From Morinoia aosen (lineage: Eukaryota; Arthropoda; Malacostraca; Amphipoda; Talitridae): 64,000 bases of DNA. Location: contig CM059577.1 of assembly GCA_030386875.1 (NCBI GenBank), positions 25,307,038 to 25,371,037 of the forward strand. The letters run 5' to 3'. Position 1 is the first letter of the stretch; every line of letters starts with the position of its first letter. The notes beneath the pieces were generated by a model. It saw only the letters and a list, made by a program, of their open reading frames with translations, ran no database searches and had not been told where the DNA came from. Below are positions 31,156-56,239 of this stretch, piece by piece. The translations under genes were made by a program, and so were the position numbers.

Positions 31156-31248
31156 CTATAAAAGATGGTGAGAACTGAGAATACGATCGAGAAGAAAACT
31201 ACCGAGAAGATGACTACCAAGAAGACAATCAAGAAAAAGAAACCGCCA

Positions 31249-31690
31249 AGAGGAACAAGACCACCCGAAAGAAGAGGAACAAGACCACCCGAAAGAAGAG
31301 GAACAAGACCACCCGAAAGAAGAGGAACAAGACCACCCGAAAGAAGAGGAACAAGACCACCCGAAAGAAGAGGAACAAGACCACCGGAAAGAAGAGGAAC
31401 AAGACCACCCGAAAGAAGAGGAACAAGACCACCCGAAAGAAGAGGAACAAGACCACCCGAAAGAAGAGGAACAAGACCACCCGAAAGAAGAGGAACAAGA
31501 CCACCCGAAAGAAGAGGAACAAGACCACCCGAAAGAAGAGGAACAAGACCACCCGAAAGAAGAGGAACAAGACCACCCGAAAGAAGAGGAACAAGACCAT
31601 CCGAAAGAAAAGGAACAAGACCACCCGAAAGAAGAGGAACAAGACCCCGCGGAAGAAGAAGAACAATACCACCACCCAGAATAAGAACAA
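31249..31690. repeat. Minisatellite, 24-bp unit, next to last TMEM63 exon found
   Basis: About 17 nearly identical copies (on the + strand GAACAAGACCACCC then GAAAGAAGAG). On the gene strand it is pyrimidine-rich. Units become irregular toward the exon, the last degenerate unit ending about 25-30 bp from the candidate splice donor. The unit length is a multiple of three and the exon frame stays open through the array. Confidence 0.9.
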
Positions 31691-31713
31691 GACGACCGGT
31701 AAGGTGGGCTGAC

Positions 31714-31841
31714 CTCATCACACAGCGCCCTGTCCTGCTCCCCCCGGGCCACGTCGCCGCCCGTGCCGTAGGTGCGGCCCCCGCCCGGGAACAGCCCGTC
31801 CTCCTCGCACGCCGAGGGATCCACCGCAGCCGTCGCCGAGC
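31714..31841 (-). CDS. Tmem63: TMEM63 exon 15 (of those found), C-terminal tail
   Basis: Starts after ATGCAG and completes a Gly codon left by the previous exon. Encodes a low-complexity, acidic and Gly-rich tail ([35 protein letters not shown]). A donor GAG|GTCAGC gives a phase-0 end. A second possible donor (CCG|GTCGTC) lies 17 nt further on. If neither is used, the frame reads through the 24-bp minisatellite to a stop near 31156. The following exon, if any, was not found. Confidence 0.7.
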
Positions 31842-34800
31842 CTGCATCATGGGAGCAATCAGTGTTTCCGGATGATACCTTCAATTTTCCTGCTGTGTGA
31901 TGAATAGTGAAGTGCCTTAGTTACGATTGTAAGCATTTGATTCTGTAGACAGAGATTTGATTTGATAAGTTGATTTCAGCCTTTCTAACCACCAACACTA
32001 CAGAAGTGTTGCCAAGAGAGGAAGGTGCCACATTTGGTTTAAAATTGAAGAAACGTGGAATCTATGCACAAAAGTGTATCCTCACGCCCCAGCGTACAGA
32101 AACAAAGGTTGAAATATGTTTCTGAAACGAGATGTTTGAAGGAAACAGTGATAAGAGCTGAAAAATTGACAGCAGTGAGTCAAAAATAGGTGGTCCGTTA
32201 AAAAAAACTTAATCTACGAGTATCTATAAGAATGAAACTAAGGCGTACTTTACATTCTGGGATTTTACCAAGGAATCCGGCTATTCAATTAACAATAAAA
32301 TGCCTTATTACAATTGCAAATAATTGTTTCTGCAAAATAATTTCCGTCAAAGTTTTTTGGCAAGGCGTCTATAAACTAAAATTTTAGCATCAAAATCCAG
32401 CAAGTACTTTTGCAAAGGAGTAGTCTCTTATAAAAACGCATTAAATAAAAATTATCTTAATTTTTCATTGATACTCCACATATATATAATAAGACTAATA
32501 AAGATATTGTTCAGAACTAGTGCTATTAGATTTCTGAGAAGAAATAGTTTATTCAGTATATCAAAATAGTTAACGATAACTGAAGGAAGCTATCCCACAA
32601 AGGGTACTCTAAAACTGCAATTTTTAGCTTCTAAAACACGGTAAGGAGGTGAACCAAACACTAGACATTTTTTGGATGATTATAGATTTTACGTTAGTTC
32701 AAGCCTCTCTAACCGCTACAAAAAAAAGTGTCTTGAAGAGAGGAAGGAGGGAGGCACCATTTAGTATGGAGATAAGGGAATGCGGAATCTATGCAGAAGG
32801 GGCATAGAAACAGCAAGTTGAGAAAGAAGTTCATGAAACAAGACAAAAGTTGATGAGGAAAGTAGTAAGTGCTGAAAAACAGGACAGCAGTGAACCGAGA
32901 AAAAGGTGGTCCTGAACTCAACAAAAAAATTTCTTTTCAACAAAAATAAAACCTACGTAACTCTCAGCTCGGGCAATCACACATTTTTCACCTGAGAGTG
33001 CTAATTCCCATCGATACAACAGTTGTCACCTCCTGAGGGGGCACATTATTTTTTTTTTGGAATCAGCATTTTTGACGCAACTCTCAATTATCTCGAACTG
33101 AAGAGAAATGAACAACATTCAAAGGTTCATACATTAATGAAACTGTAAAGTCTCATACTACATCAGCGATTTCTTTTTGACCATCGTTATTAGAAATTGA
33201 ACATTTTTTCGAAGCACCTTTAATCGTACTATTATTGCGCTTGCAATTTTTAGCACTCGCCAGCGTAATGATATAGCATTCCCTGCACCAACCCACCATT
33301 ACCACTGCACTAGGGCACACCAACACACAGCTGCCATGAAGCACACTAACACACCCCACTATTCGCACCACCAACCCACCATTGCCACTGGCCACGCTGC
33401 TCTCCTTGAGCACGTCCGGCACGAAGACGCCCGCCTCCTGCTTAGGGCGCAAGCTGGACGGCCCCTGTGAGCTGGCCGATACAGTGTCCGCCTCCTCGCC
33501 TCCGCCCGACGGCTCCCCGCCGCCGTCAGGGGCAGACACTTCCGTGCTCTGCACAAGACACACGGAAATGGCAGACCACACCACGGGTGGCAGCCCACAC
33601 CACGGGTGGCAGCCCACACCACGAGTGGCAGACCACACCACGAGTGGCAGACCACACCACGGGTGGCAGACCACACCACGGGTGGCAGACCACACCACGG
33701 GTGGCAGACCACACCACGGGTGGCAGACCACACCACGGGTGGCAGACCACACCACGGGTGGCAGACCACACCACGGGTGGCAGACCACACCACGGGTGGC
33801 AGACCACACCACAGGTGGCAGACCACACCACGGGTGGCAGACCACAAAATGGCAGACCACACCACGGATGGCAGACCACAAAATGGCAGACCACACCATG
33901 GTAGGCAGACCACGAAATGACAGACATTGCTGATAGACCACACCACTGGTGGCAGACTACAAAATGGCAGACCACACCACTGGTGGCAGACCATAAAATA
34001 GCAGACATTGCTGGTAGACCACACCACGGGTGGCAGACATTACTGATAGCAGATCACAAAACAGAAAACCACATCACTAGAATACTTTTCTCCATATAGT
34101 TATGTATATGGTTTGAGTGAATGAAAATTTTTGCTTCGATCCACTTCACAATATACCTCATACAAATGAAAATTTCACGCTTGAAGACAGATTAATAATA
34201 TTATAAGCACGTTAAAGAAACAATTTTGCAATATCTTCAAATCCAGGTAAATAATAGAAGTAAACTATAAAACCACACCTTGAAATTTGATGCGGATCTA
34301 ATTGCTACCAACCTCATGACTACACTACACCCACCTCAATAAAACCTAGACTAACGGCTAAGTACTTCACTAAAATACTGCATGTCTGAACTAGCAAACC
34401 TACAGCAAGTCACTTCACTGCTGTACATCAGATTTGGTCAGCTTCAGGGAGCATGGCGACGTATTGAAGGGACGCCTACACACGAAATTAAACCTTCGAA
34501 ATCAATCACGTGAGATAGCAGAAAGTTGTGAATCCAAAGCTACTTACAAGCATTAGACACGTGACACAAAAACTACGAGAAGTATAAAAGAAGAAAAGCA
34601 TCAGAGATAGTTTGAAGCATCACAGTCAGAAGTAAGGACTGCGGTATTTGACAAAGTCAATATCAGTAAGTTTGCACATCGGCCAAACGATATATAGGCA
34701 CCAAATAGGTCTCAAGTTCCATTCCATATTATGCAGGAATTAGACCTTGAATGTCACTATTTATAAACAAGTCTCCCTGTCTTATGTGTTGATAAAAACC

Positions 34801-37800
34801 CATAAGACAGGAATCTCCGTCCATCGAACAAAGACATGTGAAGACACATTGAGCTGAGCAGCCATCAGGACGATCGCTCACATGAACTTATTACAATCAT
34901 CAGGCTTCAAATTCTCTACAAGCCACCCAACCCCGTCACCCACCAGAGGAGCAAACAACAAGGCCGACAACTCCACGGAGCACGCGCACTCACTCACCTG
35001 GTAATCAATGGGACTGAGGTCCTTGAACCAGTGGAGGCCGAGGTGCGTGATGACCACAAGAAGGGTGATGCAGAGCAGCACGAGGCTGTAGATGCTGCGT
35101 GCCTTCTCGATGCCCTGACGCACCACCGAGAAAAAGAGGAGGCACAGCTGCAGCAGCACGATGGACACCATCACGAAGTTGACCGCTGTTGCATGGATGT
35201 TCTTGCTGATCCGTGACGGTCCATACGCGAAGTAGATGTTGTACTTGTCCACGAAGTGCTTGAAGATCATGTAGACTAGACCTGCCGTTGCAATGGCGGT
35301 CAGTAACACTCGTTCAAGTTAATAACGTTGAGAGGGTATGAATGTGATACGTTCAAGTCATCATCTGTGCATGGTGTGGTTCAATATTAATTAAGATCAT
35401 GCGAGTTGGAAATATACTCGAGGGAAATGAAAGATTAGAATTGACGTTCGTTTAAGCCTACCTAACCGCCGTTCAAAAGAGAAGAAAGAAGGCACCAGTT
35501 GGTATGGAGTTAAGGGAACGCGAATTTTACAAAATCAATTCCATCGATTTCAAGCTTTTTTTCAAGCCCTATCAATTGATATATTTTCCATTTCTGTACC
35601 TCTAAAACTGTGGGAGAAGGTCTACTTCAAACGTCAAAAACTTCAGGTTTTAGGAGAGCCCCACAAACTCGGTGCATGAGTGGCCTGCTTCTCAACCTAG
35701 CTCAGAATTTGTTCACTGTGTGTGTCAAGTGAGTTTTGTTTTCGTTTCAAAGCATTTCAAACATGAGCTGTACGGCTAACTCTCACCTGCTGAAAGCTTA
35801 AATCTGCTTTGCCGTTAGGGAGGTCGGGGTAAGCGCGCTTGACGACCTAGGGGGCCAGTGTGGGTAAAAACTCAAGTCCATTTTTCAATGGATTTTTCTG
35901 AAATTTTCACCATGTGTAAAATGATGCAACAATCTCTTTAGGATTTGTGCTTTTCTTCGTAAATTTTATTAGAAAATTAATTTAAAAAAACTGAAACAAG
36001 AGGACTTTAGAAACTGCTTCTCCTTCTTCAATTTTGAAGTTACAGAACTGGCAACCTGTTCTTTAGATAGCTAAATGTATTATTTAAAGAAACATTGGAA
36101 TGGAATTTCGATATTTTGATTGGTTGATTTTTAAAATTAAAATTTTCATTTATTACTTTTGACATTTTATCTGTTATTTTCAAACTAAACAGTTTTTCGA
36201 AAAAAATCATCCGTCATTTTTTAGCTTTTTTCAAGTCCTATCTATTGATAAATCTGCCATTACTGTACCATTCAAACTGTGGGAGAAGTAGCATTTCAAA
36301 CGTTACCAACTTCAAGCTTTCATAAAAGCCTGACAAACTCATCATATGGCCGTGTAATGAAGTAAATGTCTTGCTTTCCGCAAGCTGTAGCAGACAAATG
36401 AACCCACTAACAAAGCAGTGAAGCATATCATTAAATTCATAAAATAAAATCCCCATAGCATGAGCTAAAAACAGTAAAATTATCATTTTTGGATAATAGG
36501 GACGAGAGAAAGGGACTCGGCACGACGAGAGAAAGGGACTCGGCACGACGAGAGAAAGGGACTCAGGAGAAGAGGACTCTCACCGAAGGGCGTGATGAGG
36601 GGGCAGGAGATGGAGTAGATGATGGTCATGGCGAAGATGAGCAACATCCACGCGTACTGCACCCCAAACTGGAACTCGTAGAGAATGGCACGCCGCACGC
36701 TGGCAGTCTCCGCCTCTGATCTGTAATGCAATCGAATTACTTACCTACGGTTTTATGGGGATTTTTAGATGCAAACAATCCTATCTATGCAAATCTACAC
36801 ACGGTGGCCATAAAAAATGTAATCACTGATTTTTTAATATTTTGTATCTACGATACACAACATTAGTTCGATTCTGCCACACTTCTTTAGTTTTTATCCC
36901 TTTGAAATGCTGGGTAATAAACATCATTAAACTTTTTTACGGTATCATAAGTACATTAAATTAAAAAATTAGTGGGCAAATTTGCGGAGGGCATCCTGTG
37001 TAACAATAAAGCTCTGATAAACTTGACAAGTTGTTCCCTTGGTTATCACCTTCCATGCTCTACTTTCAAGATTAATGTCAAGCAGAATTGAACACCCTGT
37101 TTTATTAAATAATATAAGATAAAATTCAGAATATACACAAACACTGCACTGTGGATACGATCTGTTACAAAGACCCATTCAATGGAAATTTTTTTTTCAA
37201 AAATCAATTAGATTTTTCATCGAACCAGATTTGAATGTGTCCTTGTATTACAGGAAATGACAGCTTTTTCTTTTCCTTCAATTTTTCAGACTACTTACTG
37301 ACGATGGAGCTGGTCTTCAAAACGTTTAATTGAACTGATACTTTCTTATTTTATATTTAGGCCGTGTTAAATTTTCAAAAAATATGATTTCAATGCTTTG
37401 CGCATTCTTCACCATCATGTTCCTGATGATCATTTGCGTTTAGAAAAATCACTTTCCTGAATAAATAACAAGATGACATCATTATTATCACACATCATCA
37501 CTATGACCACAAATCATCACCACTACCACATAACATCATCACCACCACCACGCAATACCACCATCACCATCACCACTACCACCACCACCACCAAACAACA
37601 CCACCATCACCACTACCACCACACAACACCACTACCACCACCACACAACACCACCATCACCACTACCACCACACAACACCATCACCACCATTACCACCAG
37701 CACACACAGCCACCATCACCACTACCAGCACACACAACCACAACCACCACTACCAGCATACACAACCACAACCACCACTACCAGCACACACAACCACCAC

Positions 37801-40800
37801 CACCACTACCAGCACACACAACCACCACCATCACCACTACCAGCACACACAACCACCACCAGAGCGCTAACAACAGCAGCAGCAGGGATGAGCAGACCTG
37901 GCGAGAGCAAGCCTGATGATGTACATGAAGAGCTCCGGGAAGCGGATGAGCTCGAGGGAGGTGCCGATGAAGGCCGAGGTGATGATGTAGTTCACGAAGA
38001 AGGCGCCGTTGTCAGGCAAGAAGATGCACTCCCAGCGGTAGGTGGCGTTGTTGGCGGTCGGGTTGGCTATCCACTCCACCAGCGCCTTAGCGCTGCAACC
38101 ATATGTTAGTCAGTGCAAATATAGCCCAACGAGTGCACGCACATACTCATTCACTGCAAATACAGCCTAACAAGTGCACACAATATGTTATTCATTGCAA
38201 ATACAGTCTAAGAAATGGATGCACTAGGTTATTCATTGCAAAATACAATCTAAGAACTGCACACACTAGGTTATTCATTGCAAATACAGCCTAAACATTG
38301 CACGCACCAAGTTATTCATTTCAAATACAACCTAAGAAATGTACGCATTTTGGTGTTCAATGAAAATGAAGACTTAGCACTGTACCCACATGGACTGATA
38401 AAAGAACAGCCTTAGCGTACTCTCTATGCCATTGCTCCAAAACTCATATTCACAATAGTTTGCCGCATCCATTCATCAAGAATAACCCATGAAGAACAAA
38501 ATAGAACATCACAAACGCTGAACTAGGAGATGAGGAGGAGGAGGAGGTACACGTGAAATTTCAAATGAATCTGACAGTAATTAATTAGTACCAGTACAGT
38601 CTACACTCTTAACTTCACTTACCCCAAATTCTGACCAGAAGATAGAGATGATGTACTACAATGCAAGCGGTCACTTCGAGTGCAAAAGTGCAATAGTTGA
38701 ACAGCACACACACACACACACACACACATTAGAAATTTTTTACCAAATCCGAATCAAAAATGGTATCACCAATGCGGATTTGAGTAAATACACTGGACTA
38801 AGAGAAACAAACACAGAAAATTAAAAGTAATCCAATCCACTGGCGTAAGAAAGTAAACCCCGTGGATGAGGAGAGGAAAGTAAACCCAGTGGATGAGGAG
38901 AGGAAAGTAAACCCAGTGGATGAGGAGAGGAAATTTAACAGAATAGAGTAGATGGGATGGCGGAGAGACAAGACGGACCTGGTGAGCCCCAGAGAAGGCA
39001 GGATGATGACCATGAAGAGGAGGAAGGAGAAAGTCTTCCTCATGACGGCGTGGTTCTCAGCAGAGCGGGTCCAGTGCGACATGAACTGGTCAGAGTAGGC
39101 CACCAAGACCGGCATCAGCGCGGCCATCGTCCACAGTAGCAGCGTAGGGAAGAACTCAGACAGCACCGGGCTCTGCGGCAGCGTGTAGGACAAGTCAGCT
39201 GCAACTCGAGTCAAGCCATTCTTTATTGTCTCAAGTATTGCTCATTTTACTACCGTTGCAGTCGATGCTACTGCAGGGGGCGGCAACATAACTTCCTTCT
39301 TTCAAAACCAAATAAAACCCATTCTGTATCTCAGAAAAGTTTTATTTGTTTTTATAATGCAGGTACACACATAAAGTTCTGTTTTACACAGTTTTAAAGA
39401 TCAAATCAGGTAGGTGACATCCCCATGAACAAAACAAAAACTGTTTTATTTCAATAAAAAGAAAGCCTACCTAACTTACAGCTCTGGACCTCACATTTCC
39501 CCAGCGAGTGCTAAATTGAGCGCCATCAAGCACTGCACTAAACTGCCATTGGCAACTTACAGCAAAAATGAGCAGCGTGGTCCTGCAATAACACACAATG
39601 ACAGCACGAGAAGAAATGAGAACTCAAACATACACAGTGATACACCAAAAACTTCCGTCCTCCAGACCTAAGGAAGGAGGAAAATATCTTGAAATGATTA
39701 GCACAGAAGACCACAACAGCTACACGAATAGCTAGAGAGGACACGAGCCAGAGGGCGGCTGAAAATGAGTTTCAGCACAAGCAATCGAGGCCCGAGTCTT
39801 GCATCAAGGTCATATTGAAGCACATGGTCAGAGTTCAACAGCCACAATAATGTCAAGTGAATATACAACACTCTTTTTACTAGGACTATTACCCAAATTT
39901 TTTTTTTTAATTCTATGAAATCAAAATGTCAAATAATTATTTTTCTAAGAAAACAAGAAGAAACTTCAACAACCTCTACAATGCCAAATGAACATATTGG
40001 GTTGGCCAAAAAGTTTGTTTGTTTTTTGAATGTCCTTTCCTACCTCCTAAAGATCATCTTCAAATCTTGTATTCAGCAGCGAGCATGTTTACGTCAGTGT
40101 TTAATGAGCCTCGAAGCAGATAAGTAGAGAAATTCCAACATTTTTACTTACATTTGAGCCCTTGAACTGGAGGACCTAGCAGAGCACTACTGACATCTTA
40201 TGTCTTACTTCAGGAAAGGAAAGAAAGTAACAGAAACTTGCAAAAATACAGGACATGTGTGAGGGGTACTTTCCGTTACTTTCTTTCCTTTTCTAAAGCA
40301 AAAAAAACTCACACACAAGCACTAGTTAAACGGTGTGTGAAATTAATAGTCATAAAATATCTGCTTTCGTTTCATCATAAAAAGTGGCCTTTTGCAAATT
40401 TGTGGCCCTATCATTTGACATGTTGTTGAATGATATTATGATAAAATATGAAAGAGAGTTAAGTTATACTGAACATGTTTGAATCTACAGAATTTAACCA
40501 AATAAAAACGAGTTAACTAGCACACACCATTTGCTCGAGCAGATAGAATTGAACGAGTGAAAACGGGCTAAATAACACGCATTATTTGTTTAAGATGAGA
40601 GAACTCAAGACACATGAGTTAGAGCTAAATAGCACTCCCAACCTTCTCAATGAGAAAAAATTGAAACTTGTGCAAACGAGCTAAGCGCGACGCACCATCT
40701 GCTCCAACTTGTCAGCGAAGTACACAAAGTCCAGGGAGTTGATGACGACGGCCGGAGTCGTGAGGAAGAAGAGCACCAAGAAGAGCACAGAGTTGATCGC

Positions 40801-43800
40801 CAGGGCCTTCGCCCACCAGTGACGCGTCGTCACCGACAAGTTCTTCCTGCATCACCAAGCCATTTTACAGCACGCCATTCAAACAATATATCACAGAAAT
40901 TTCATTTAGTTTAATTTTAGGACAGTATATTGCTTATGAATTTTAGGGCTTGTTAATTTTAGGACAGCATATTGTTTATTGATCTTAGGACAACATATTG
41001 TTTATTAATTTTAGGACAACATATTGCTCATTAATTTTAGGACAGCATATTGCTTATTAATTTTAGGACAGCATATTGCTGGCACATGTAAAGTTTTCTG
41101 AGCTTTTAGAGTTCTAGAGTTTTATCCTTCACGAGCACTTTGATAATATACGTCATTTCATACTAACACAGAGTCAGTAAGCACCAAGTTAACACTACAC
41201 ACCTTAAAGACGGAGAGAGGTCTCACGCTCCTTTGCGTCATGGCTCATATTTTTGTTATAACGTAAATATGAACACCAAATTGTACATGCTAGGCAATCT
41301 AAGAGAAATGGCTAGACTGACACGAGACACCATAACCCTGGACTCGCTCACGTCCATGGCTCAGGCATTAACTACCAGCCCAGCTCTGACGTGACGAGGC
41401 GACCAGTACCACAACATGCAGCGCAGGCCAGGATGAACATGACCTCCGAGCACGTAGCCAAGAGACTGGAGCTGTGGCACCACAAGGCAAGTCTCGAGAC
41501 CATGAGCAGACCCAAGTCTTCCGAGAAGTAGGAACACGGTAAGGCGGCTCACTACATAGAGAATGATGGGCAATTGAGGTATGAAGAGCAACTGAGAAAT
41601 AAAGGCAAGCAAAATGGTTTTGCAAACGACGGAAATCTGAAACATGAGAAGTCCCCAGAAATTGAAGTAGCATCGATAAATGGAGAGGAACCAGAAAATG
41701 AAGAGGAACCAGAAAATGAAGAGGAACCAGAAAATGAAGAGGAACCAGAAAATGAAGAGGAACCAGAAAATGAAGAGGAACCAGAAAATGAAGAGGAACC
41801 AGAAAATGAAGAGGCACCAGAAAATGAAGAGGCACCAGAAAATGAAGAGGAACCAGAAAATGAAGAGGAACCAGAAAATGAAGAGGAACCAGAAAATGAA
41901 GACGAACCAGAAAATGAAGAGGAACCAGAAAATGAAGAGGAACCAGAAAATGAAGAGGAACCAGAAAATGAAGAGGAACCAGCAAATGAAGAGGAACCAG
42001 CAAATGAAGAGGAACCAGAAAATGAAGAGGAACCAGAAAATGAAGAGGCACCAGAAAATGAAGACGCACCAGAAAATGAAGAGGCACCGGAAAATGAAGA
42101 GGCACCAGAAAATGAAGAGGCACCAGAAAATGAAGAGGCACCAGAAAATAAAGAGGCACTAGGATATGGAGAGGCACCAGAAAATGAAGAGGCACCAGAA
42201 AATAAAGAGGCACCAGAAAATAAAGAGGCACCAGAAAATGAAGAGGCACCAGAAAATGAAGAGGAACCAGAAAATGAAGAGGCATCAGAAAATGAAGAGG
42301 AACCAGAAAATAAAGAGGCACCAGAAAATAAAGAGGCACTAGGATATGGAGAGGCACCAGAAAATGAAGAGGCACCAGAAAATAAAGAGGCACCAGAAAA
42401 TAAAGGGGCACCAGAAAATGAAGAGGCACCAGAAAATGAAGAGGAACCAGAAAATGAAGAGGCACCAGAAAATGAAGAGGAACCAGAAAATGAAGAGGCA
42501 CCAGAAAATGAAGAGGAACCAGAAAATGAAGAGGAACCAGAAAATGAAGAGGCACCAGAAAATGAAGAGGCACCAGAAAATGAAGAGGCACCAGAAAATG
42601 AAGAGGCACCAGAAAATGAAGAGGAACCAGAAACAGAAGAGGCACCAGAAAATGAAGAGGCACCAGAAAATGGAGTGGTACCAGAAAATGGAGTGGTACC
42701 AGAAAATGGAGTGGTACCAAAAAATGGAGTGGTACCAGAAAATGGAGGGGCACCAGCAAATGGAGGGGCACCAGCAAATGGAGGGGCACCAGCAAATGGA
42801 GGGGCACCAGCAAATGGAGGGGCACCAGCAAATGGAGGGGCACCAGCAAATGGAGGGGCACCAGCAAATGGAGGGGCACCAGCAAATGGAGGGGCACCAG
42901 CAAATGGAGGGGCACCAGCAAATGGAGGGGCACCAGCAAATGGAGGGGCACCAGCAAATGGAGGGGCACCAGCAAATGGAGGGGCACCAGCAAATGGAGG
43001 GGCACCAGCAAATGGAGGGGCACCTTCAAATGGAGGAGCACCAGCAAATGGAGGGGCACCAGCAAATGGAGGGGCACCAGCAAATGGAGGGGCACCAGCA
43101 AATGGAGGGGCACCAGCAAATGGAGGGGCACCAGCAAATGGAGGGGCACCAGGAAATGGAGGGGCACCAGCAAATGGAGGGGCACCAGCAAATGGAGGGG
43201 CACCAGCAAATGGAGGGGCACCAGCAAATGGAGGGGCACCAGCAAATGGAGGGGCACCAGCAAATGGAGGGGCACCTTCAAATGGAGGAGCACCAGCAAA
43301 TGGAGGGGCACCAGCAAATGGAGGGGCACCAGCAAATGGAGGGGCACCAGCAAATGGAGGGGCACCAGCAAATGGAGGGGCACCAGCAAATGGAGGGGCA
43401 CCAGGAAATGGAGGGGCACCAGCAAATGGAGGGGCACCAGCAAATGGAGGGGCACCAGGAAATGGAGGGGCACCAGGAAATGGAGGGGCACCAGGAAATG
43501 GAGGGGCACCAGGAAATGGAGGGGCACCAGGAAATGGAGGGGCACCAGCAAATGGAGGGGCACCAGGAAATGGAGGGGCACCAGGAAATGGAGGAGCACC
43601 AGGAAATGGAGGGGCACCAGGAAATGGAGGGGCACCAGCAAATGGAGGGGCACCAGCAAATGGAGAGGCACCAGGGAATGGAGGGGCACCACCTACCAGT
43701 AGATGTTGGAGGGCGCAGGAGCGGGCCTCACGATCCAGTTGTGGGGCTTCAGGTCCGTAGAGACAGACGACCCAGCCGGCTCTCCCATGCACCTGGCGAG

Positions 43801-46800
43801 AGACAACTCCGTCAGGCGATACCGATGATATTTATGGTGAACGCATGAACAAGGAACTTCATCACACTTGGAATACAAATGAGGATCAAAAGAACAAATG
43901 AGAACCAAAGGAACAAATGAGAACCAAAGGAACAAATGAGAACCAAAGGAACAAATGAGAACCAAAGGAACAAATGAGAACCAAAGGAACAAATGAGAAC
44001 CAAAGGAACATATGAGACCCAAAGGAACAAATGAGAACCAAAGGAACAAATGAGAACCAAAGGAACATATGAGACCCAAAGGAACAAATGAGACCCAAAG
44101 TAACAAATGAGAATGAAAGGAACAAATGAGAATGAAAGGAACAAATGAGAACCAAAGGAACAAATGAGAACCAAAGGAACAAATGAGAATCAATGGAACA
44201 AATGAGAAACAATGGAACAAATGAGAACCAAAAGAACAAATGAGAATGAAAGGAACAAATGAGAATCAAAGGAACAAATGAGAATCAAAGGAACAAATGA
44301 GAATCAAAGGAACAAATGAGAACCAAAGGAACAAATGAGAATCAAAAGAACAAATGAGAACCAAAGGAACAAATGAGACCCAAAGTAACAAATGAGAATG
44401 AAAGGAACAAATGAGAATGAAAGGAACAAATGAGAATGAAAGGAACAAATGAGACCCAAAGGAACAAATGAGAACCAAAGGAACAAATGAGAACCAAAGG
44501 AACAAATGAGAATCAATGGAACAAATGAGAAACAATGGAACAAATGAGAACCAAAAGAACAAATGAGAATGAAAGGAACAAATGAGAATGAAAGGAACAA
44601 ATGAGACCCAAAGGAACAAATGAGACCCAAAGGAACAAATGAGAACCAAAGGAACAAATGAGAATCAAAGGAACAAATGAGAATCAAAGGAACAAATGAG
44701 AAACAATGGAACAAATGAGAAACAATGGAACAAATGAGAACCAAAAGAACAAATGAGAACCAAAGGAACAAATGAGAACCAAAGGAACAAATGAGAATCA
44801 AAGGAACAAATGAGAAACAATGGAACAAATGAGAAACAATGGAACAAATGAGAACCAAAAGAACAAATGAGAATAAAAGGAACAAATGAGAATCAAAGGA
44901 ACAAATGAGAATCAAAGGAACAAATGAGAATCAAAGGAACAAATGAGAACCAAAGGAACAAATGAGAATCAAAAGAACAAATGAGAACCAAAGGAACAAA
45001 TGAGAACCAAGGAACAAATGAGAATCAGAGGAACAAATGAGAACCAAAGGAGTTTATTAGTTCATTAGTTAGTTTAAGCCTCCCTATCCTCAACAATGAG
45101 ATGTAAAGAGAGGAAGGAAGAAGGCACCATTTAGTATGGAGTTAAGGGAACGTGGAATCTATGCAGAAAGGGCACAGAAACAGAAAGCTAAGAAAGAAGT
45201 TCATGAAACAAGAAAAAGTTGAAGAAGAAAGTAGTAGGCGGTGAAAAACAGGACAGCAGTGAACCGAAAAAAGATGGTCCGTAACACAACAAAACCTATT
45301 CTATTTTAACAAAAGAAAGCCTACCTAACCTTTAGCTCGGGCCCTCACATTGTCCCCCTGGGAGCGTGAGAACCAAAGGAACAAATGAGAACCAAAGGAA
45401 CTAATGAGAACCAAAGGAACAAATGAGAATCAAAGGAACAAATTATAACCAAAGGAACAAATGAGAATCAAAGGAACAAGTAACTTGACCACAAGTGGAA
45501 CACGCTTGATGGCCAAAGGAACAAATAACTTAATCACACGTGGAACACACTTGATGAACAAATGAAACACAAACTTCATTATACTTGCAACACCAAGGAC
45601 AACTTATGCAATAAGTAAGCGTCAATTCAAACACACGAGTATATTTTGAAAAGTTAACTATTTTTAAAATTATAGAAAGTATTTATCCATACCAAGTATA
45701 GAGCTAGTTAATGAAAATACATCTTTCTCACTCAGTTTGTACTTCGACATTCGTAAGCATCAGCAAGAAATTTCTAGGAAATTAGTTAATTGGAATCATT
45801 TCGAATGGAGTCAAGGGAACGCAGAATTTTTGCCCAAGGTTAAGGAGAAAGTTACATTAAGTTAAGAAACAACTTTGTGAAACGAGATGATAAAAGTTGA
45901 AGATGAAAGTAATAGGTGTTGGAAAACAGGACAGCAGTGAACCGGAAAAGATGGTTCATAATAAAACAAAACGAAAATGTTTCAACCAAAAATCTCGCTA
46001 CTTTTCAGCTCAATACCTCACATTTTTACCATGAGAGCGCTAATTCTCATAGACATAATAGTTGTGCCCTCCTGAAAGAAGAACAATCGAGATGCCACTT
46101 GGGGGCGTTGTAGACGCACCTACACCAACTACAAGTACTCTCTGGTATGAAGGAGACATTTTCTGCTGAATGAACGAAACTTTGCAGCATTGTTAGTTTT
46201 GCAGGAGCTTGTAGCTCCCCCACCACCTTTACACACAGTTAACCATCAGTGGCGGACAAATTGTTTACTTATTCAATTATACCTATGTGTATACACTAAT
46301 TTTTATTATAATACTATATTGTATATTAGCATGTGCTATATTGTCATATATCAATCCATTCAAATACGCACAAGTATGAAGCTGTGGATAGAGTGGACCG
46401 AACGTGCGAATCGTAATTTACATTCTATTACTGCAATGTATATTATTATATATTGTAATATTATACATCAATCTATGCAATTAAGCAGAAGCATGGAGCT
46501 GTGGGTAGAGTGTACCGCGACCTGGAGGCAGTCATCACTACACGGACGCTGACCTGCATGGGACGGACTTGTGGTCCTTCATGATCCTGGCGGCGCTCTC
46601 CCTGGAGTCGAGCGTGACGAAGGCCACACCGGTGGGCCGCTGCAGCGCCTTCACCTTCTCCGTCTCAACGCGCGATGCCAGGCATGACTCCAGCTGCGTG
46701 TAGTACTCCAGGGCGTCCACCTGCACACAGGGGGGCGTGAGAGCGCACGCTAGCATTTTACATGGGCAACATAACAAAATGCTTACTTATTCCACTGCAC

Positions 46801-49800
46801 TTATGTGCGTACACTTATTTATATACTCACTTATTTGCTTCATCCTAGAAATTACAATTTTGCTACAGTGTATATTAATATATATCGTATTATCATACAT
46901 TACTTCGTTCATTTATTACTTTTTTCATTTATAACAATACATTCATTTATTCAGGGATTAACCTCCATTGGAACTCAGTTTTAAAGCACTTATCACAGAG
47001 AAGGGCTAAGACGTTCAAGTGTTACCACAAGGGGGTAAAATTCAGTGTCTCGATTAGGAGAAGTGTTGTAAGCATCTTGACGAGATGCTGAGGTGATGCG
47101 GCGATAAAAAAGGAACATGGACACTCGCACATGAGAACGCTTGTATGGTACATCTGACTACCAACATGAGATAGAAAGATGTATAGAATAGAAAGCAACA
47201 TGAACTGCTTTATTGCACGTCTAATTCAACAACAGATCCTTGTAACGAGCACTCCTGATATTGCAGTGAGTAGTACAAGTGGCAGACTAATTGAAAGTTC
47301 TTAGCTGCTGCTGGTTTTCTCACTAAAATATTACACACATTAACTACAGGAATCACTCTTTACAAGCTCCCTTCCCGCTCTACACACAGGCTACCCTCTC
47401 CACCTCTATACAGACTCCCCTCCACCTCTACACTCCTCTCCTCTACACCCTCCAACCCAGACACCGTTCAACAATCTGCTTTTATACCTACAACCCACTT
47501 GAAGAATGAAACAAAAAACTATGAGGTAACAGCGGTCTCTGGAAGAGCCACCAACCTTGGGACACCCGAAGATGTCGCAGCAGCCACAGATGACCCCACA
47601 CTTGTACGGCCGCATCAGCAGACGCTCCCCGGTGTCCTTCTCGAAGCCTTCGCAGTACAGGCGGGCTCGGTGGGCCAGCTCTCTGAGGCATAATTCATAA
47701 TTGAAAATGCAACCTTATTTTTCATAGCAAATGCTGAATGTTCATTTACAAATATGTCTTGAGGTAGTGCTTGATATGTGAATTTTCGACACATTGAAGA
47801 TAGACTAGTGTGCAGCTCGAATTGTGTGGTTTTAGCAGAATGCTCTCAATGATACTGATTGTTTCTTTTACCCCAAGTGTTTTGCAGCATATCCTTGCAT
47901 TAATCTGTTAACCATCAGTGTCTAGTTATCTGTCCCTGGTAGGTTGTATTTTCAGTGTCACTGTCCACTTTAACTAACTCTCGCAGTGTTCTTCAATTGA
48001 ATTTTTCCATTTAAGTAGACGCATGGATTTTTCACCTATCTGTGATGGTCACTGTCCCCATATCAGTTCTGCAACACAACTGAAGGCGAAGTGACAGTGT
48101 CAATGCGCCGCGTCCACATCGCAGTCTCGGATATCAGGGTAATAAGTCGACATGTACAAGAAGGTTTTCAAACAGGTCGTACATAAAAGAAAATTTTTCG
48201 ATATTCCTGCTCAAGAGTTTGAATAATTTAAAACGTACTGCCTAATCTCTACGTACCACTGATGCTGATCTTACTGCTGATCAGCCAATAAGAAGGATGG
48301 AGCCCTTCACTTATACGGATAGGTGGTTAAAAACAATTCTGAATCTTCACTAATTAGGTTAATGGAAATAATCAATATGATATACCAGATAACAGGGCCT
48401 AGCAGACATTGCTGAAATAATAATTCCTCTATAAGAAAATTCCTAAATAAACACACTATAAAAATCTTAAAGGGAGTATTTCAAAAGCATAACATCAAAC
48501 CTAGCTAGCACTGACGACGTAAGCCAAAGTGGTCCATTATTTTCCCTTTGATTGAAAGTCAACACAAGCTGCAGTCCAACAGAAAACACCGTTGCACAAG
48601 CAAAAAGTAAAGAGGGACCAAAACGTCTTTAAAAATCCTGAATTGTTGCACAAATGCCAAAAAACGACAATGAACCGACACTTCTAAATAGACAAGACAC
48701 TTCACAGCACAGGTAGAGGCAAAGCCAGGATATAACACATTTCTGCTCACCTCTGGCCATCATAGAGGATGAGATCCTTTATTCCGTAGGCAAACTGGAC
48801 GTCCACGACCTCCACCTCGGGGTACGCCTCCCTGTAGCACCGCAACGGGGGTTATTGGGGGCGGTGGGGGTGATGGGGTGAGGGAGATGGTGGGGTAGTG
48901 GGGGTGATGGGGTGAGGGTGATAGTGGGGCACTGGGGATGATGGTATGGAGGCGACTGGGTGATGACGTGATGTTTCCTGTGGAGCATTTGAGGGGATTG
49001 TGTAATGGTGTGATGTATTACGGAGCAGTGGAGGTGGTTTTGAGTAATGGTGTGAAGATTATTATGGGGCAGTGAAGCTCATTGTGTGATGGTGTGGAGA
49101 TTGTTATTGAACAGCAGATGTGATGGTGTGATGATGGATATTATAGAACAGCAAAGGCCATTAAATACCCTTGCCTTTAACCCTTTCCTTCCCAACACTC
49201 TTAATTGTTAAGGAAAAAATTTTCTGAGGTTATTCCAGTCATGACCCTGAAATATCAGCAAAATTGCCCTAGCATGTTTTTTTTTGCATAAGCAGGTGCT
49301 TACTTCCTTTTAACCAAGTTGACTACGATTGTGCGTGTTGTAAGTTGATTTAGTAAGGTTGTAAAAAATAAACTGGTAAAATCGATTTATTTGCTTGAAT
49401 AAATTTTCGTCCTTTGTAAGAAATGTACAAAATGTAAGAGCTCAATGATATTTTTACGGTATGATAGAATTCCTTCAAAATAGGTTGCAAAATGGTTTGA
49501 AATGTTTTACATTTACATTGGTGCGTACATGAACAATTTACCTAGTGGTACACATTCGTCCCACTTCGTGGTCACAGTGTCAATTGAAAAAAATTATGCT
49601 TTAAAAATGTATGCTTCGACGCCAAAAAAATGGCCGAAAAATCTGAGAAAAATATCAATTTAGTTTATGCCTAATTTTATCTGTAAATACATGTACGTAT
49701 GAAAAACTTGCTCAAATAAAAAAGGCATTAAATGTATTGCATAGACCACGAAGCTTACACTGAGTGGATATCAATAGCAAATTGCACGTGTCAAACTTCT

Positions 49801-52800
49801 GGAATATCTAAAAACATAGTGGCAGGAATATTATTAATTGCCCTAATTTTGTCATTTACTTCAAATTATTTCCCTACTAGTTGAATCACCCTGAAACTTT
49901 GTAAATTTTCCTAAACTGGAAGCACTAGCCATCAGGGAACTGGAGTTCCGGTCGGGAGGCAAAGGGAAGTAAGAAAAGTAGAATTTCTACTCTTCTATAC
50001 AGAACTGAGATGGGTACGTGTCTTGGAAATTTTAGTTTCATCAAGAATAAAACCACAAACAACGGAATAAAATTCATTATTCTAAAAAGGGGCATTCAGA
50101 CTAGCGCTAGTTTCAACACTTCATTATCAATGAATGCTCTGAAAATAAGATCAACAATATAAGAAAATTGATATTTAAATAATTGCTACATAGATATACA
50201 GCCTATATAATATACAATTGGCAGGCACTTTGATCACAGTTAAGAACAAGTTTCTGCTTAAAAATGTGCATTGATTCTAAAATCCGGAGATCGCTATTAC
50301 ACGTAGAATCTAAAATTGAAAAATCATCCACCGAGAATAATGGTTAGTGTTTTCACAGTGAAGTCTAGGCAAAGACTGAGATGGAGTTGCTAGCGGCCTA
50401 TTAGTTCTAAACGATTTGCCTAGATGTTGGTGACATCTAATCTTCGACTGTTTCAGATTGCTCTCTATGTAGAGAACTCTGGCAAGTTCCACACTGATAT
50501 TTATACACAATACTAGAGAGCAAATCTTTCGGCAGTCTGTCTTCATACTGGAAAAATGATTTTATTTGGAACCCGTTGCAAAAAACAAAATTGAAATCGA
50601 GTTGGGGATAAAATTTTCTCAAATTCCTAGCTATAACATTGTTTTAGTTCATCAGAAGTTGGTCTAATATACGGAAGAGATAGATATAAAGCACATTTGG
50701 AAATTGTAGCTACTGTGACCTTTGGCTTATTGAACATTTTGTTTAAAAACTTTTTAAGCGTATAGTCAAAAAAATATTGAGGGTATCTCTTGGTAGAAAA
50801 AAATGTCCTCAAATAATTTAGTTCTTCGCAAAACTTATGATAGTTTGATGACAAGTGAAAGGTTCTGTGAAGAAGTGTTCTCAAACTATTCAGTTTAAAA
50901 ATGAAAGGAGTAAAGCTGAAGAAACTATTTCCTAGACCAGTGAAAGTCAGTTTCCGATAAATGCCTAGTTGAAGATGATTGTCAAAGCGTTCAACATTAA
51001 GGTCTAAAAAAGGCAAAACTGAATCATTTTCTACATCCATGGTGAATTTGATATTTGGGTGTTGACTATTTATATGATCTAAAAACAGATTGGCATGAGT
51101 GACATCATTAAAAATAACAAAAGTATCGTCCAAACATCGGTTATGAAAAACAAGTTTGAAAAAATCTGGACAAGAAGACAGGTACTTATTTTCCATATTG
51201 CACATAAATATGTTCGCCAAAGTAGGGGCTAGAGGGTTACCCATTGCCAGGCCATCTATCTGCTTGTACAAAATATTATTGAAATAAAAACACGTTTCAG
51301 TGACAGCCAACTAGGCATTTATCGGAAACCGACTTTCACTGGTCTAGGAAATAGTATTTTCAGCTTTACTCCTTTCATTTTTAAACTGAATAGTTTGAGA
51401 ACACTTCTTCTGTTCACAGAGCCTTTCACCTGTCATCAAACTATCATAAGTTTTGCGACGAACTAAATTATTTGAGGACATTTTTTTCTACCAATGAACT
51501 CACTAGAAGTACGCAGGCACACACCGGCAGAGCGGCGGCCACTCACTGGAAGTGTCTGAGGAGTGTATCTTTATGGCAGGAGCGGCGCGGCACGTGTGTG
51601 ATCATGACGGTGCGGGAGACGGAGGAGTTGGCGGCCTCCTCCTCACTGGAGGAGTTCGGGTCCAGGTCGGTGGCCTCGTTGATCTGCAGCAGCCGCGAGT
51701 GGTGGCGCGTGAACGCGATCCCCAGCGGCAGAAACAGGAAAGCCAGCGTGATGTGCACCCACATGAACGGCGAACTGCACACGTCAAATGAATTTACTCC
51801 TAAGTTTGAGGCACTTCAATCTAAATCAATGACTGAAGACTATTTGTGCTTGTAAATTCCTGGCAGTGTGGGGATACTGGGTGCTGGTGATGGTTGTGCT
51901 TGGTCATGAGGAGCTTTGCTGCTTAATGAAGTTGTTTGTTCTGAGCATTGGTCAAGTGGTGAGCTCAATAATTTAGCAATAAATATCATCTCTTTTTAAA
52001 TAGAACTAGTGAGATGAAGTGATTAGTAATGGGCAAATAAAGGGGTTATGAGAAAATTAGTAATGCCTGTTGGTGCAGGGATAAAAGCATTGGGCATGTT
52101 AGAACATTATATAATAATTATATTAACCTACATCAAATGTGACCACAGAAAACATTAGCACAGACATAGTCTTCCTTCACACACTGCAAAATAAAGCAAA
52201 GGCAGCACCCGAAGCCCTACTTTAGATAATTAAGCATTAGAATTATTTGGCAGTGCATTTACTGAAAATAGCCAAGCAAGCACCTGGATTGCGCTACTTC
52301 AAAGTAACTGAATGTCAGCACTTAAGAGTTGCCATTCAAATGAAGAAATGGAAAAATGAAGCCAAATTCACTCAACTTAACAGCATGTCAATACCTAGAG
52401 CTACACATAAAAAAAAGAACTAGGAGCTGTATTTGCTTAAAATAACAAAGCAATATTTTTACTTAATGCTGCCCCTACAAATAAAATAGCATCAGCAACA
52501 CTTAGAACTGTACTCACTTTCAATAACAAAGTAATATCAGTACCTGAGCTGCCTTTACAGATAATAAAGCATTTGCTACACTTGGAGCAGTACCTACTCA
52601 CTCGAAATAACTAAGCAACATCAGTACCTGGGGCTGAGATTGGAAATGGTTGTGTGTCCGAACTCCTTCTCGCCGCCTTCCAGGGTGCCCTGGAAGTTGA
52701 TGGGCAGAACAACAGAGATACAGATGACGCACACGACGGCCACGTACACGATCATGTGGCGCTGGAAGCTCAGGTAGTGCACCGCATCACAGCCAGACTT

Positions 52801-55800
52801 GCGCAGGATGTGAGCATCCCTGAGGCAAGAAAACAAGCAAATAAAATGGGGAGTAATTACACCTAGCAAATGCAGTTTGAAAGTGCTCATATAAAGGTGC
52901 AATTGAAATGCCATTTGAGTTAACAAAATGAGTTTTCCACCATGAAGAATGACAAATTAAATGCTACTAATATACAGAGAGCCCCATAAAAACCATCATG
53001 GTTCAAGGTCAAAAGCCCTATTGTTGTAAGGTGACCCAGAAGTCCTACTGGCATTAGGTGACCCAGAAGTCCTACTGGCATAAGGTGACCCAGAAGTCCT
53101 ACTGGCATTAGGTGACCCAGAAGTCCTACTGGCATTAGGTGACCCAGAAGTCCTACTGGCATAAGGTGACCCAGAAGTCCTACTGGCATAAGGTGACCCA
53201 GAAGTCCTACTGGCATAAGGTGACCCAGAAGTCCTACTGGCATTAGGTGACCCAGAAGTCCTACTGGCATAAGGTGACCCAGAAGTCCTACTGGCATAAG
53301 GTGACCCAGAAGTCCTACTGGCATAAGGTGACCCAGAAGTCCTACTGGCATAAGGTGACCCAGAAGTCCTACTGGCATAAGGTGACCCAGAAGTCCTACT
53401 GGCATAAGGTGACCCAGAAGTCCTACTGGCATAAGGTGACCCAGAAGTCCTACTGGCATAAGGTGACCCAGAAGTCCTACTGGCATAAGGTGACCCAGAA
53501 GTCCTACTGGCATAAGGTGACCCAGAAGTCCTACTGGCATAAGGTGACCCAGAAGTCCTACTGGCATAAGGTGACCCAGAAGTCCTACTGGCATAAGGTG
53601 ACCCAGAAGTCCTACTGGCATAAGGTGACCCAGAAGTCCTACTGGCATAAGGTGACCCAGAAGTCCTACTGGCATAAGGTGACCCAGAAGTCCTACTGGC
53701 ATAAGGTGACCCAAAAGCCCTACTGGTGTAAGGTGACCCAAAAGCCCTACTGGTGTAAGGTGACCCAGAAGTCCTACTGGCATAAGGTGACCCAGAAGTC
53801 CTACTGGCATAAGGTGACCCAGAAGTCCTACTGGCATAAGGTGACCCAAAAGCCCTACTGGTGTAAGGTGACCTAAAAGCCCTACTGGTGTAAGGTGACC
53901 CAAAAGCCCTACTGGTGTAAGGTGACCCAAAAGCCCTACTGGTGTAAGGTGACCCAGAAGTCCTACTGGCATAAGGTGACCCAGAAGTCCTACTGGCATA
54001 AGGTGACCCAGAAGTCCTACTGGCATAAGGTGACCCAAAAGCCCTACTGGTGTAAGGTGACCCAAAAGCCCTACTGGTGTAAGGTGACCCAAAAGCCCTA
54101 CTGGTGTAAGGTGACCCAAAAGCCCTACTGGTGTAAGGTGACCCAAAAGCCCTACTGGTGTAAGGTGACCCAAAAGCCCTACTGGTGTAAGGTGACCCAA
54201 AAGCCCTACTGGTGTAAGGTGACCCAAAAGCCCTACTGGTGTAAGGTGACCCAAAAGCCCTACTGGTGTAAGGTGACCCAAAAGCCCTACTGGCATAAGG
54301 TGACCCAAAAGCCCTACTGGTGTAAGGTGACCCAAAAGCCCTACTGGTGTAAGGTGACCCAAAAGCCCTACTGGTGTAAGGTGACCCAAAAGCCCTACTG
54401 GCATAAGGTGACCCAAAAGCCCTACTGGTGTAAGGTGACCCAAAAGCCCTACTGGTGTAAGGTGACCCAAAAGCCCTACTGGCATAAGGTGACCCAAAAG
54501 CCCTACTGGCATAAGGTGACCCAAAAGCCCTACTGGTGTAAGGTGACCCAAAAGCCCTACTGGTGTAAGGTGACCCAAAAGCCCTACTGGCATAAGGTGA
54601 CCCAAAAGCCCTACTGGTGTAAGGTGACCCAAAAGCCCTACTGGTGTAAGGTGACCCAAAAGCCCTACTGGTGTAAGGTGACCCAAAAGCCCTACTGGTG
54701 TAAGGTGACCCAAAAGCCCTACTGGCATAAGGTGACCCAAAAGCCCTACTGGTGTAAGGTGACCCAAAAGCCCTACTGGTGTAAGGTGACCCAAAAGCCC
54801 TACTGGTGTAAGGTGACCCAAAAGCCCTACTGGCATAAGGTGACCCAAAAGCCCTACTGGTGTAAGGTGACCCAAAAGCCCTACTGGTGTAAGGTGACCC
54901 AAAAGCCCTACTGGTGTAAGGTGACCCAAAAGCCCTACTGGTGTAAGGTGACCCAAAAGCCCTACTGGCATAAGGTGACCCAAAAGCCCTACTGGTGTAA
55001 GGTGACCCAAAAGCCCTACTGGTGTAAGGTGACCCAAAAGCCCTACTGGCATAAGGTGACCCAAAAGCCCTACTGGTGTAAGGTGACCCAAAAGCCCTAC
55101 TGGTGTAAGGTGACCCAAAAGCCCTACTGGTGTAAGGTGACCCAAAAGCCCTACTGGTGTAAGGTGACCCAAAAGCCCTACTGGTGTAAGGTGACCCAAA
55201 AGCCCTACTGGTGTAAGGTGACCCAAAAGCCCTACTGGTGTAAGGTGACACCCAAAAAATTTTATTTAGCGATTTCAATAATTTCGCCCAAATGCACACC
55301 TGGTACAAAAAATACATAATTGCTCACAACATGAAAATAGCAAAAGTATGTCTATATGGCAATGAACAGTCACTTCTTCAATTACATGGTGAACTGGCAA
55401 TGAATAACCATCCAACAATTTTCACCTCAAGAAAAGGCATGAGTACTGATCAATTTTGATGTTACATGAACCAGATATCCGAGTTCAAACGTAAGAAAGA
55501 ACACCAACAATCAGAAATATTAGGTTACAAGGAATAGTTAATAATATATTCTTTTGACAAGAAGCACATCTACCCAACATAATTTTAAACAATATTAAGC
55601 AAATGAGGTTCTGTGACAAGGAACTCTCATCAAACATAATTCTATTACTAGATCTTGTTCCACTTTAGGTAATTCAACTCACTTGATTTTGAAGATGGCA
55701 GGTATCCAAGAGAAAGTTCCTTGATCAATGTGAAGATTAAAATCATAAGAAGCAACAGAGTCACTCTCGCTGCCCACCGACTGCTTTTGGTTGCTCTCTG

Positions 55801-55829: not shown

Positions 55830-56239
55830 CTGGTGTGGGGCAGCATGCATGCTTTATTAGTTGAATGAAAAAATTATGAATAGAGTAAAATATTTGCATG
55901 TATGTCAACAGATTATACAGACACTAAGCTGGAGCTAATGATGGAAAACAAGAATTACAGGCAGTAAACTTTTCATTGGTTCCACACGACAAGCCATAAA
56001 ATTTGAATCATTATTTTCCACCATAATTGGAAGAACAGAGCAAAATTTAAATAAAAAATTGCAATAATTTAATTTTCTTAAGCTATTTCATTGAAGAAAT
56101 TTCTAAGGAAGCATAAGATATCAGAAATTATAGAAAATTACTTGGCAGCATAAGAGCAAGAAAAAACTGAAAGGATTAAGTAAATACAAAAGGACTGAGC
56201 CTAAAGAAGTCAAGCACAGCAGCTTGCACAGTTAGTGAG
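55830..56239. other. Upstream TMEM63 intron, nothing recognised
   Basis: AT-rich; no exon for the TMEM63 N-terminus seen. Confidence 0.4.

What the first reader, a model, noticed from the sequence alone, without database searches (positions are those of the whole stretch)
31249..55247. Most TMEM63 exons have their own private minisatellite next to a splice site
At least nine of 15 exons have a tandem repeat within about 0-210 bp of an exon edge: exons 15 (24 bp), 14 (19 bp), 12 (23 bp x3), 11 (both sides), 10 (27 bp x3), 8 (26 bp), 7 (18 bp on one side, 19 bp on the other), 4 (G-rich) and 2 (27 bp). Exons 5 and 6 have looser repeats and exon 3 a retroelement 52 bp away. Unit sequences are unrelated, so this is not one family spreading. 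Large tracts of the same introns away from exons have no such arrays. Repeats that start at a donor (exons 7, 15) become more regular moving away. Inference: exon-intron junctions, G+C-rich and perhaps R-loop or replication-slippage prone, may seed tandem duplication in this genome, or intron ends are tolerated as repeat nurseries.
Basis: partly seen in the sequence, partly recalled or inferred. Interest (0 to 1): 0.8.

Follow-up and report, generated by a model that had tools for sequence, protein, structure and literature searches.

The report
Tandem repeats seeded at splice junctions
In this large animal genome, short DNA segments beside the edges of exons have repeatedly been copied in tandem, so that about half of the strong repeat arrays found in sampled introns sit within 50 bases of a splice site, not only in the gene where it was first seen.

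Summary
The gene is an animal TMEM63, minus strand, 14 recognised exons. TRF arrays lie by 9 of 14 exons. With arrays cut out of their introns, 7 of 11 strong arrays lie within 50 bp of a splice site, though those margins are 9% of the non-array intron; mean relative distance 0.178 against 0.5, P about 2e-5.

Out-of-sample test in the same genome (1.99 Gb): in 112 introns of five unrelated gene families, 26 of 54 strong arrays lie within 50 bp of a splice site, 4.2 expected, P 4e-15. Masking dispersed repeats does not change this. In 5 of 26 the unit contains exon end plus splice signal, as in the "mirages" of amphioxus genes (PMC3087553). In TMEM63 no exon signal was found in the units.

Best reading: tandem duplications are seeded at exon-intron junctions in many genes, then expand and drift, while the exon-side copy keeps the splice site. 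Why junctions is open: a G-rich-transcript R-loop does not fit most TMEM63 arrays, and GC step and splice-site strength do not predict arrays. Closest known: amphioxus mirages. New: scale, intron-only majority, a genome too large for amphioxus. Species, reads and RNA not available.

The parts
55683..55830 (-). TMEM63 E1 (donor at 55683; 5' limit approximate)
   Evidence: Frame and donor read; 5' end not resolved
53010..55249 (-). 27-bp array, 83 copies, intron 1, 190 bp from E2 acceptor
   Evidence: TRF score 3437, distance
52628..52819 (-). TMEM63 E2
   Evidence: RSN1_TM Pfam hit, PDB alignment, splice sites
51547..51774 (-). TMEM63 E3
   Evidence: PHM7_cyt below cut-off
48847..48944 (-). 34-bp imperfect array, C-rich on the sense strand, 15 bp from E4 acceptor
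48751..48831 (-). TMEM63 E4
47556..47682 (-). TMEM63 E5
   Evidence: no Pfam hit alone
46554..46720 (-). TMEM63 E6 (PHM7_cyt)
45367..45593 (-). 19-bp array in intron 6, the one strong array of introns 1-13 far from a splice site; TRF unit like that of 43875-45051, with a dispersed repeat between them
43875..45051 (-). 19-bp array, 62 copies, 82 bp from E7 acceptor
43697..43792 (-). TMEM63 E7
41678..43691 (-). 18-bp array, 112 copies, begins 5 bp after E7 donor
40948..41080 (-). 26-bp array, 101 bp from E8 acceptor; decayed copies continue towards the acceptor
   Evidence: flank homology P 0.003
40696..40846 (-). TMEM63 E8
38979..39172 (-). TMEM63 E9 (RSN1_7TM), acceptor corrected to 39172
38849..38933 (-). 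27-bp array x3, 45 bp from E9 donor
38093..38347 (-). 41-bp array x6 running to the E10 acceptor; the last copy holds the 3' splice region
   Evidence: flank homology P 0.003
37898..38092 (-). TMEM63 E10
37477..37861 (-). GGT-rich (sense) imperfect array, 36 bp from E10 donor
36584..36720 (-). TMEM63 E11
36501..36564 (-). 23-bp array x3, 19 bp from E11 donor
34998..35281 (-). TMEM63 E12
   Evidence: RSN1_7TM just below cut-off
33569..34038 (-). 19-bp array, 20 bp from E13 acceptor
33380..33548 (-). TMEM63 E13
   Evidence: splice sites and frame; mostly beyond the PDB alignment
31714..31841 (-). TMEM63 E14, last recognised exon; its donor is weak and its frame stays open into the array
   Evidence: no homology support of its own
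31248..31673 (-). 24-bp array, 18 copies, 40 bp from E14 donor
   Evidence: flank homology P 0.003

Best explanation
In this genome short tandem duplications (units about 17-160 bp) arise preferentially with one breakpoint at or within about 50 bp of an exon-intron junction, donor or acceptor. A duplication there is tolerated because the copy next to the exon keeps the working splice site. The extra copies lie in the intron, expand by slippage or unequal exchange and drift, giving anything from two-copy duplications to minisatellites of 45-112 copies. Some units still carry exon end plus splice signal; most show only intron-end sequence. TMEM63 is a strong case, with arrays at 9 of 14 exons. 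Shown: position, breadth across sampled genes, exon-plus-splice-signal units in 5 of 26. Inferred: that the bias is in mutation and not in survival, and the expansion route. Unknown: why junctions break.
For: TMEM63: collapsed-intron test P 2e-5, 3.6e-5 with dispersed repeats removed; 7 of 11 arrays in the 50-bp margins that make up 1300 of 14672 nt. Five other families, arrays of score 100 or more: 26 of 54 within 50 bp against 4.2 expected, P 3.6e-15; score 50 or more: 29 of 80 against 6.3; array edges near the site 25 against 1, 3 and 3 at points 150, 300 and 500 bp into the intron; donor side 16, acceptor side 10; by family 4 of 8, 4 of 7, 9 of 16, 8 of 19, 1 of 4. With dispersed repeats masked: 29 of 54 against 5.0. 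Near arrays lie in 18 of 50 100-kb bins. Units spanning the junction: L048 (66 bp, 45 copies by TRF, first three printed) and L035 (106 bp, 2 copies) repeat 26 nt of exon end plus donor; L022 does so at both ends of one intron; L047 repeats 55 nt; 5 of 26 at P<=0.01. TMEM63 E10: the acceptor region is the last copy of the 41-bp array. Flank homology between array and splice site is significant for 3 of 11 (P 0.003 each), Fisher 7e-5, against 0.018 for distal flanks; own unit beats other arrays' units on that stretch, P 0.0014, driven by E14 donor and E10 acceptor.
Against: Exon sequence is demonstrable in only 5 of 26 units elsewhere and TMEM63 shows no collective exon signal over 11 junctions (P 0.65). 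Distal flanks of arrays also show some homology (Fisher 0.018). No tested sequence property explains the junctions well. SNF2 genes show only 1 near array of 4. The binomial P treats arrays as independent, though some share introns and genes. A survival bias cannot be excluded without relatives or population data. The refined splice sites come from a recalled human-like weight matrix, not RNA. Only one genome was tested, in 112 introns chosen through hand-typed hits, and no random-DNA control was obtained.
Confidence: 0.62

Rival explanations
1. These are mirages in the strict amphioxus sense: every array began as a duplication containing both exon and intron sequence, and TMEM63 shows only decayed ones.
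For: 5 of 26 arrays elsewhere carry exon end and splice signal in the unit; the E10 acceptor array reaches the exon; PMC3087553 and PMC3902484 (passages) describe the same anatomy.
Against: No collective exon signal in TMEM63 units; 21 of 26 near arrays elsewhere are not significant for exon sequence at P<=0.01, two of them at 0.015 and 0.02; 12 of 26 have edges 12-46 bp inside the intron.
Confidence: 0.15
2. Selection for function: arrays beside splice sites are kept because they help or tune splicing, for example pyrimidine-rich tracts bound by splicing factors.
For: TMEM63 arrays are T-rich on the sense strand (mean T-A skew 0.46 against 0.09-0.10, P<=1e-4) and poor in purine triplets (1.43 against 6.8 per 100 nt, P 3.5e-4). 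T-rich sense motifs are known for intronic repeats in Daphnia (PMC3152781 passages).
Against: The T richness does not generalise: T-A skew of near arrays 0.14, far arrays 0.23, all introns 0.11. Splice-site strength does not differ (P 0.30; P 0.56). Units are in the main unrelated to each other.
Confidence: 0.1
3. GC-rich exon edges form R-loops or stall replication and so seed repeats.
For: Exon-edge GC is slightly higher at boundaries with an array (0.581 against 0.544, P 0.02); margins are GC-richer than deep intron in TMEM63 (0.43 against 0.36).
Against: GC step does not differ (P 0.29); within TMEM63 exon-edge GC does not differ (P 0.42), and most arrays lack a G-rich sense strand, E10 being the exception. 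A 1.2-fold GC difference would have to act very steeply to give a 13-fold density difference.
Confidence: 0.2
4. Geometry or transposon dilution: arrays fill short introns, or TEs pushed the rest of the intron away from exons.
For: Some introns are mostly array (intron 1: 2240 of 2863 bp), so any position would be near an exon. Introns at boundaries with arrays are longer (2216 against 1417 bp, arrays included, P 0.02).
Against: The nulls remove arrays, dispersed repeats seen within the window and those seen across 60 loci plus window; the signal stays. The repeat masks are incomplete, being built from the fetched DNA only.
Confidence: 0.03
5. Assembly artefact or chance selection of one odd gene.
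For: The gene was picked by a reader; arrays are hard to assemble; reads are not available.
Against: Other genes show it, near arrays lying in 18 of 50 100-kb bins of a sample spread over 21 contigs; two-copy duplications of 43-106 bp at junctions are short enough for ordinary assembly; artefacts would not know splice sites.
Confidence: 0.02

Closest known systems
Amphioxus 'mirages' (Adh3, globins BflGb6 and BflGb9, PGBD5 and others; PMC3087553, PMC3902484, passages seen; the original 2002 paper PMC117041 is not held)
   Same: Minisatellite-like tandem duplications at exon-intron boundaries, at both donors and acceptors, in several genes, some with splice signals in the copies; edge copies escape homogenisation.
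   Different: The 1.99-Gb genome is about four times the size of Branchiostoma's (recalled); most units show no exon sequence; the excess is measured here over sampled introns instead of described gene by gene; whether splicing is unharmed was not tested.
Tandem repeats at exon-intron boundaries in human segmental duplications (PMC2812944, passages seen)
   Same: Minisatellites of about 30 bp at exon-intron boundaries that can alter introns.
   Different: Restricted there to variable repeats in recent paralogues; no general excess at splice sites was seen in the passages shown to me.
Human CBS 31-bp VNTR spanning exon 13-intron 13 (recalled; PMC1395315 holds the phrase by a search listing only)
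   Same: A single VNTR across a splice junction.
   Different: One locus.
C. elegans intronic minisatellites linked to multiple alternative splicing (PMC4039745, passages seen)
   Same: Minisatellites in introns flanking exons.
   Different: Mainly a dispersed family (CeRep25B) with shared motifs; here units are in the main private to each junction.
Intron gain by tandem duplication of AG/GT proto-splice sites (Rogers model, as cited in PMC3087553)
   Same: Duplicated splice signals in tandem.
   Different: Here existing introns lengthen; no new intron was shown.

Membership tests
Amphioxus mirages | Tandem repeats placed at exon-intron boundaries | tested here: met
Amphioxus mirages | Repeat unit contains both exonic and intronic sequence (TMEM63) | tested here: not met
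   Exon-only comparison over 11 junctions, collective P 0.65
Amphioxus mirages | Repeat unit contains both exonic and intronic sequence (other genes of this genome) | tested here: met
   5 of 26 near arrays at P<=0.01; the other 21 not
Amphioxus mirages | Both 5' and 3' boundaries affected | tested here: met
   16 donor-side and 10 acceptor-side
Amphioxus mirages | Unit length 10-72 bp (Adh3) or about 150-160 bp (globins) | tested here: met
   17-159 bp among 26 near arrays
Amphioxus mirages | Found in cephalochordates | tested here: inconclusive
   Species not named; genome 1.99 Gb is too large for Branchiostoma (about 0.5 Gb, recalled); six tandem copies of a muscle-myosin-like exon point to a protostome (recalled)
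Amphioxus mirages | Length and somatic instability; normal splicing despite the repeats | not testable with these tools
   No reads, haplotypes or RNA
TMEM63 / OSCA channels | RSN1_TM, PHM7_cyt and RSN1_7TM domains; closest to animal TMEM63A/B | tested here: met
   Pfam; PDB phmmer E 2.7e-159 to CSC1-like protein 2

The most novel reading that the evidence does not exclude
Exon-intron junctions are a general mutational hotspot for tandem duplication in some animal genomes, driven by something tied to transcription or splicing of the junction rather than by base composition. Amphioxus mirages are one outcrop of it, and it steadily lengthens introns from their ends.
Probability: 0.45. Interest if true: 0.87.

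Novelty: new variant of a known kind. Interest (0 to 1): 0.74.

Why it matters
In what I could read, junction duplications are curiosities of a few amphioxus genes. If in a large genome about half of all strong intronic minisatellites start at splice sites, then intron ends are a mutational hotspot, and questions such as how introns lengthen, how duplicated splice sites are ignored, and whether such duplications feed intron gain or alternative splicing can be tested directly with existing assemblies and RNA.

Tried and rejected
Geometry, TE dilution and chance: not supported by collapsed, TE-masked and out-of-sample tests. R-loop from a G-rich transcript: not supported in most TMEM63 arrays. 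Weak splice sites attracting arrays: TMEM63 donors 2.09 against 3.77, P 0.30; 224 boundaries P 0.56. Sense-strand T richness as a general rule: strong in TMEM63, not reproduced elsewhere. One spreading repeat family: units unrelated in the main. Relatives of TMEM63 in viral contigs and of the LINE in genome contigs: none. Rfam and tRNA scans of the window: nothing. Searches for a published genome-wide excess of minisatellites at splice sites; none seen in the listings or in the passages opened; the library lacks most subscription journals.

Left out, judged by eye: intronless copies, near-identical copies, and hits without a partner adjacent in the model. Of 119 candidate introns 112 had refined sites. 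'Within 50 bp' is measured after removing other arrays. Two further genome searches, PF00664 (27 of 72 hits on C27) and PF00133 (23 of 31 on C27), were not used for introns, although some of their hits on other contigs could have given a few.

Full report
What is there. The interval holds an animal TMEM63 gene on the minus strand. Exon pieces match Pfam RSN1_TM, PHM7_cyt and RSN1_7TM, and a joined translation matches CSC1-like protein 2 in the PDB at E 2.7e-159 over its residues 3-631 of 716. The donor-acceptor pairs that I placed follow GT-AG (E4 donor corrected to 48751 from the string printed). E1 is incomplete at its 5' side, E13 and E14 rest mainly on splice sites and frame, and E14 may not be the last exon.

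Arrays. TRF finds arrays of 18-41 bp units (and two imperfect ones) beside 9 of the 14 exons. Because the arrays are long, raw proximity is partly geometry: a 2240-bp array in a 2863-bp intron cannot be far from an exon. I therefore cut all arrays out of each intron and asked where the cut points fall. For 11 arrays of score 100 or more in introns 1-13 the mean relative distance to the nearer splice site is 0.178 (0.5 expected, P 2e-5); 6 of 14 exons have an array within 50 bp, 1.3 expected, the E14 donor array not counted. Removing dispersed repeats as well gives 0.175, P 3.6e-5; keeping one array per intron, the farther one, P 1.1e-3. Seven of 11 arrays fall in the 50-bp margins, which are 1300 of 14672 non-array nt. 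No strong array lies in window 1-26000, out of 16 in the window.

Anatomy at the junctions. At the E10 acceptor the 41-bp array runs to the AG; its sixth copy is the 3' splice region and the other copies are diverged versions of it. The sequence between array and splice site resembles the unit for E14 donor, E10 acceptor and E8 acceptor (P 0.003 each, 3 of 11); over 11 arrays Fisher P is 7e-5 on the exon side and 0.018 on the far side. Exon sequence itself gives no collective signal in the TMEM63 units (P 0.65).

Out-of-sample test. When the window's own genome became searchable (1.99 Gb, 29 contigs), I took exon hits of myosin head, dynein DHC_N2, CCT chaperonin, kinesin and SNF2. I kept introns between hits that are adjacent in the model, fetched them and refined the splice sites under reading frame and model continuity; 112 of 119 introns resulted, none with an in-frame stop in the implied exon ends. 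First pass, 84 introns of three families, unrefined edges: 17 of 30 arrays within 50 bp, 2.3 expected. All five families: 26 of 54, 4.2 expected, P 3.6e-15; mean relative distance 0.298 (none of 200,000 simulated means as low); score 50 or more: 29 of 80 against 6.3; array edges near the site 25 against 1, 3 and 3 at points 150, 300 and 500 bp into the intron. Each family contributes, SNF2 least (1 of 4). The binomial treats arrays as independent, although some share introns. With dispersed repeats seen across the fetched loci masked, 29 of 54 against 5.0; array density is about 2.3 per kb in the margins and 0.18 per kb in deep intron. Of 224 boundaries 26 carry an array; 22 of the 35 introns with arrays have one near a site.

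Units that span the junction. Printed units show the exon end and the splice signal repeated in tandem: 26 nt of exon plus donor in a 66-bp unit for which TRF counts 45 copies, three of them printed (L048), 26 nt plus donor in a 106-bp pair (L035), 55 nt plus donor in L047, and both ends of one intron in L022. Against shuffles 5 of 26 are significant at P<=0.01 and two more at 0.015 and 0.02; the rest are not.

Mechanism. The plainest reading is that tandem duplications are seeded at or close to junctions. The exon-side copy keeps the function, and the remainder expands and drifts. Shown: position and breadth in the sample. Inferred: seeding rather than survival. A survival account would have to explain why duplications in free deep intron vanish while those at constrained ends stay. 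What makes junctions prone is not settled: GC step and splice-site strength do not predict arrays, exon-edge GC does so weakly. In TMEM63 the sense strand of most arrays is pyrimidine-rich and nearly free of purine triplets, which does not fit G-rich-transcript R-loops and suggested a splicing filter; but the T-A skew is not reproduced in the other genes (near 0.14, far 0.23, all introns 0.11), so I treat it as a feature of this gene.

Known precedents. [quoted passage not shown] PMC3902484, passages). Our loci work like mirages; L022, L035, L047 and L048 fit the definition by anatomy, TMEM63 does not strictly, since its units show no exon sequence. The genome is too large for Branchiostoma (recalled size), and six tandem copies of one myosin-head exon point to a protostome (recalled). 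Daphnia intronic repeats prefer T-rich motifs on the sense strand (PMC3152781, passages). I found no published genome-wide excess at splice sites in the held library, which is not complete.

Limits. One genome, no species name, no RNA, no reads, no relatives; hits typed by hand with some left out; splice sites refined with a recalled weight matrix; repeat masks built only from fetched DNA; the random-DNA control could not be fetched.

Noticed in passing
G000:C27:55.8-72.8 Mb: Intronless, often full-length bacterial-type genes (chaperonin, ABC transporters, SNF2-type helicases, tRNA synthetases) spread over this part of one contig; probably bacterial genomes joined into an unplaced record.
   Followed up: no
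G000:C1:35644596-35648320: Six tandem copies of one myosin-head exon (model positions about 376-452), one with a TGA inside the match, as in muscle myosin genes with mutually exclusive exons (recalled).
   Followed up: no
31156-31841: The TMEM63 E14 frame stays open through the 24-bp array to a stop near 31156, so the array could be coding or the weak donor GTCAGC may be used; RNA would tell.
   Followed up: partly
26097-27250 and 29145-30180: Two more large arrays (26/30 bp and 24 bp) 3' of the last recognised exon; they may flank undetected 3' exons or lie outside the gene.
   Followed up: no
50310-51494: Reverse-transcriptase fragment (RVT_1 below cut-off; Penelope-like by recall) in TMEM63 intron 3; 50790-51494 matches itself in inverted orientation.
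   Followed up: partly
6543-12187: LINE with a zinc-knuckle ORF1 and an RT plus RNase H ORF2 on the minus strand.
   Followed up: partly
17767-19642, 24936-25375, 28353-28748, 32652-33075: Dispersed repeat family, several copies in the window at about 64-83% identity, one inside TMEM63 intron 13.
   Followed up: no
L048 (G000:C1:31425749-31433230): Kinesin intron with a 66-bp unit (45 copies by TRF); the first three copies printed each hold 26 nt of exon end and a donor site; a good test case for cryptic donor use.
   Followed up: partly
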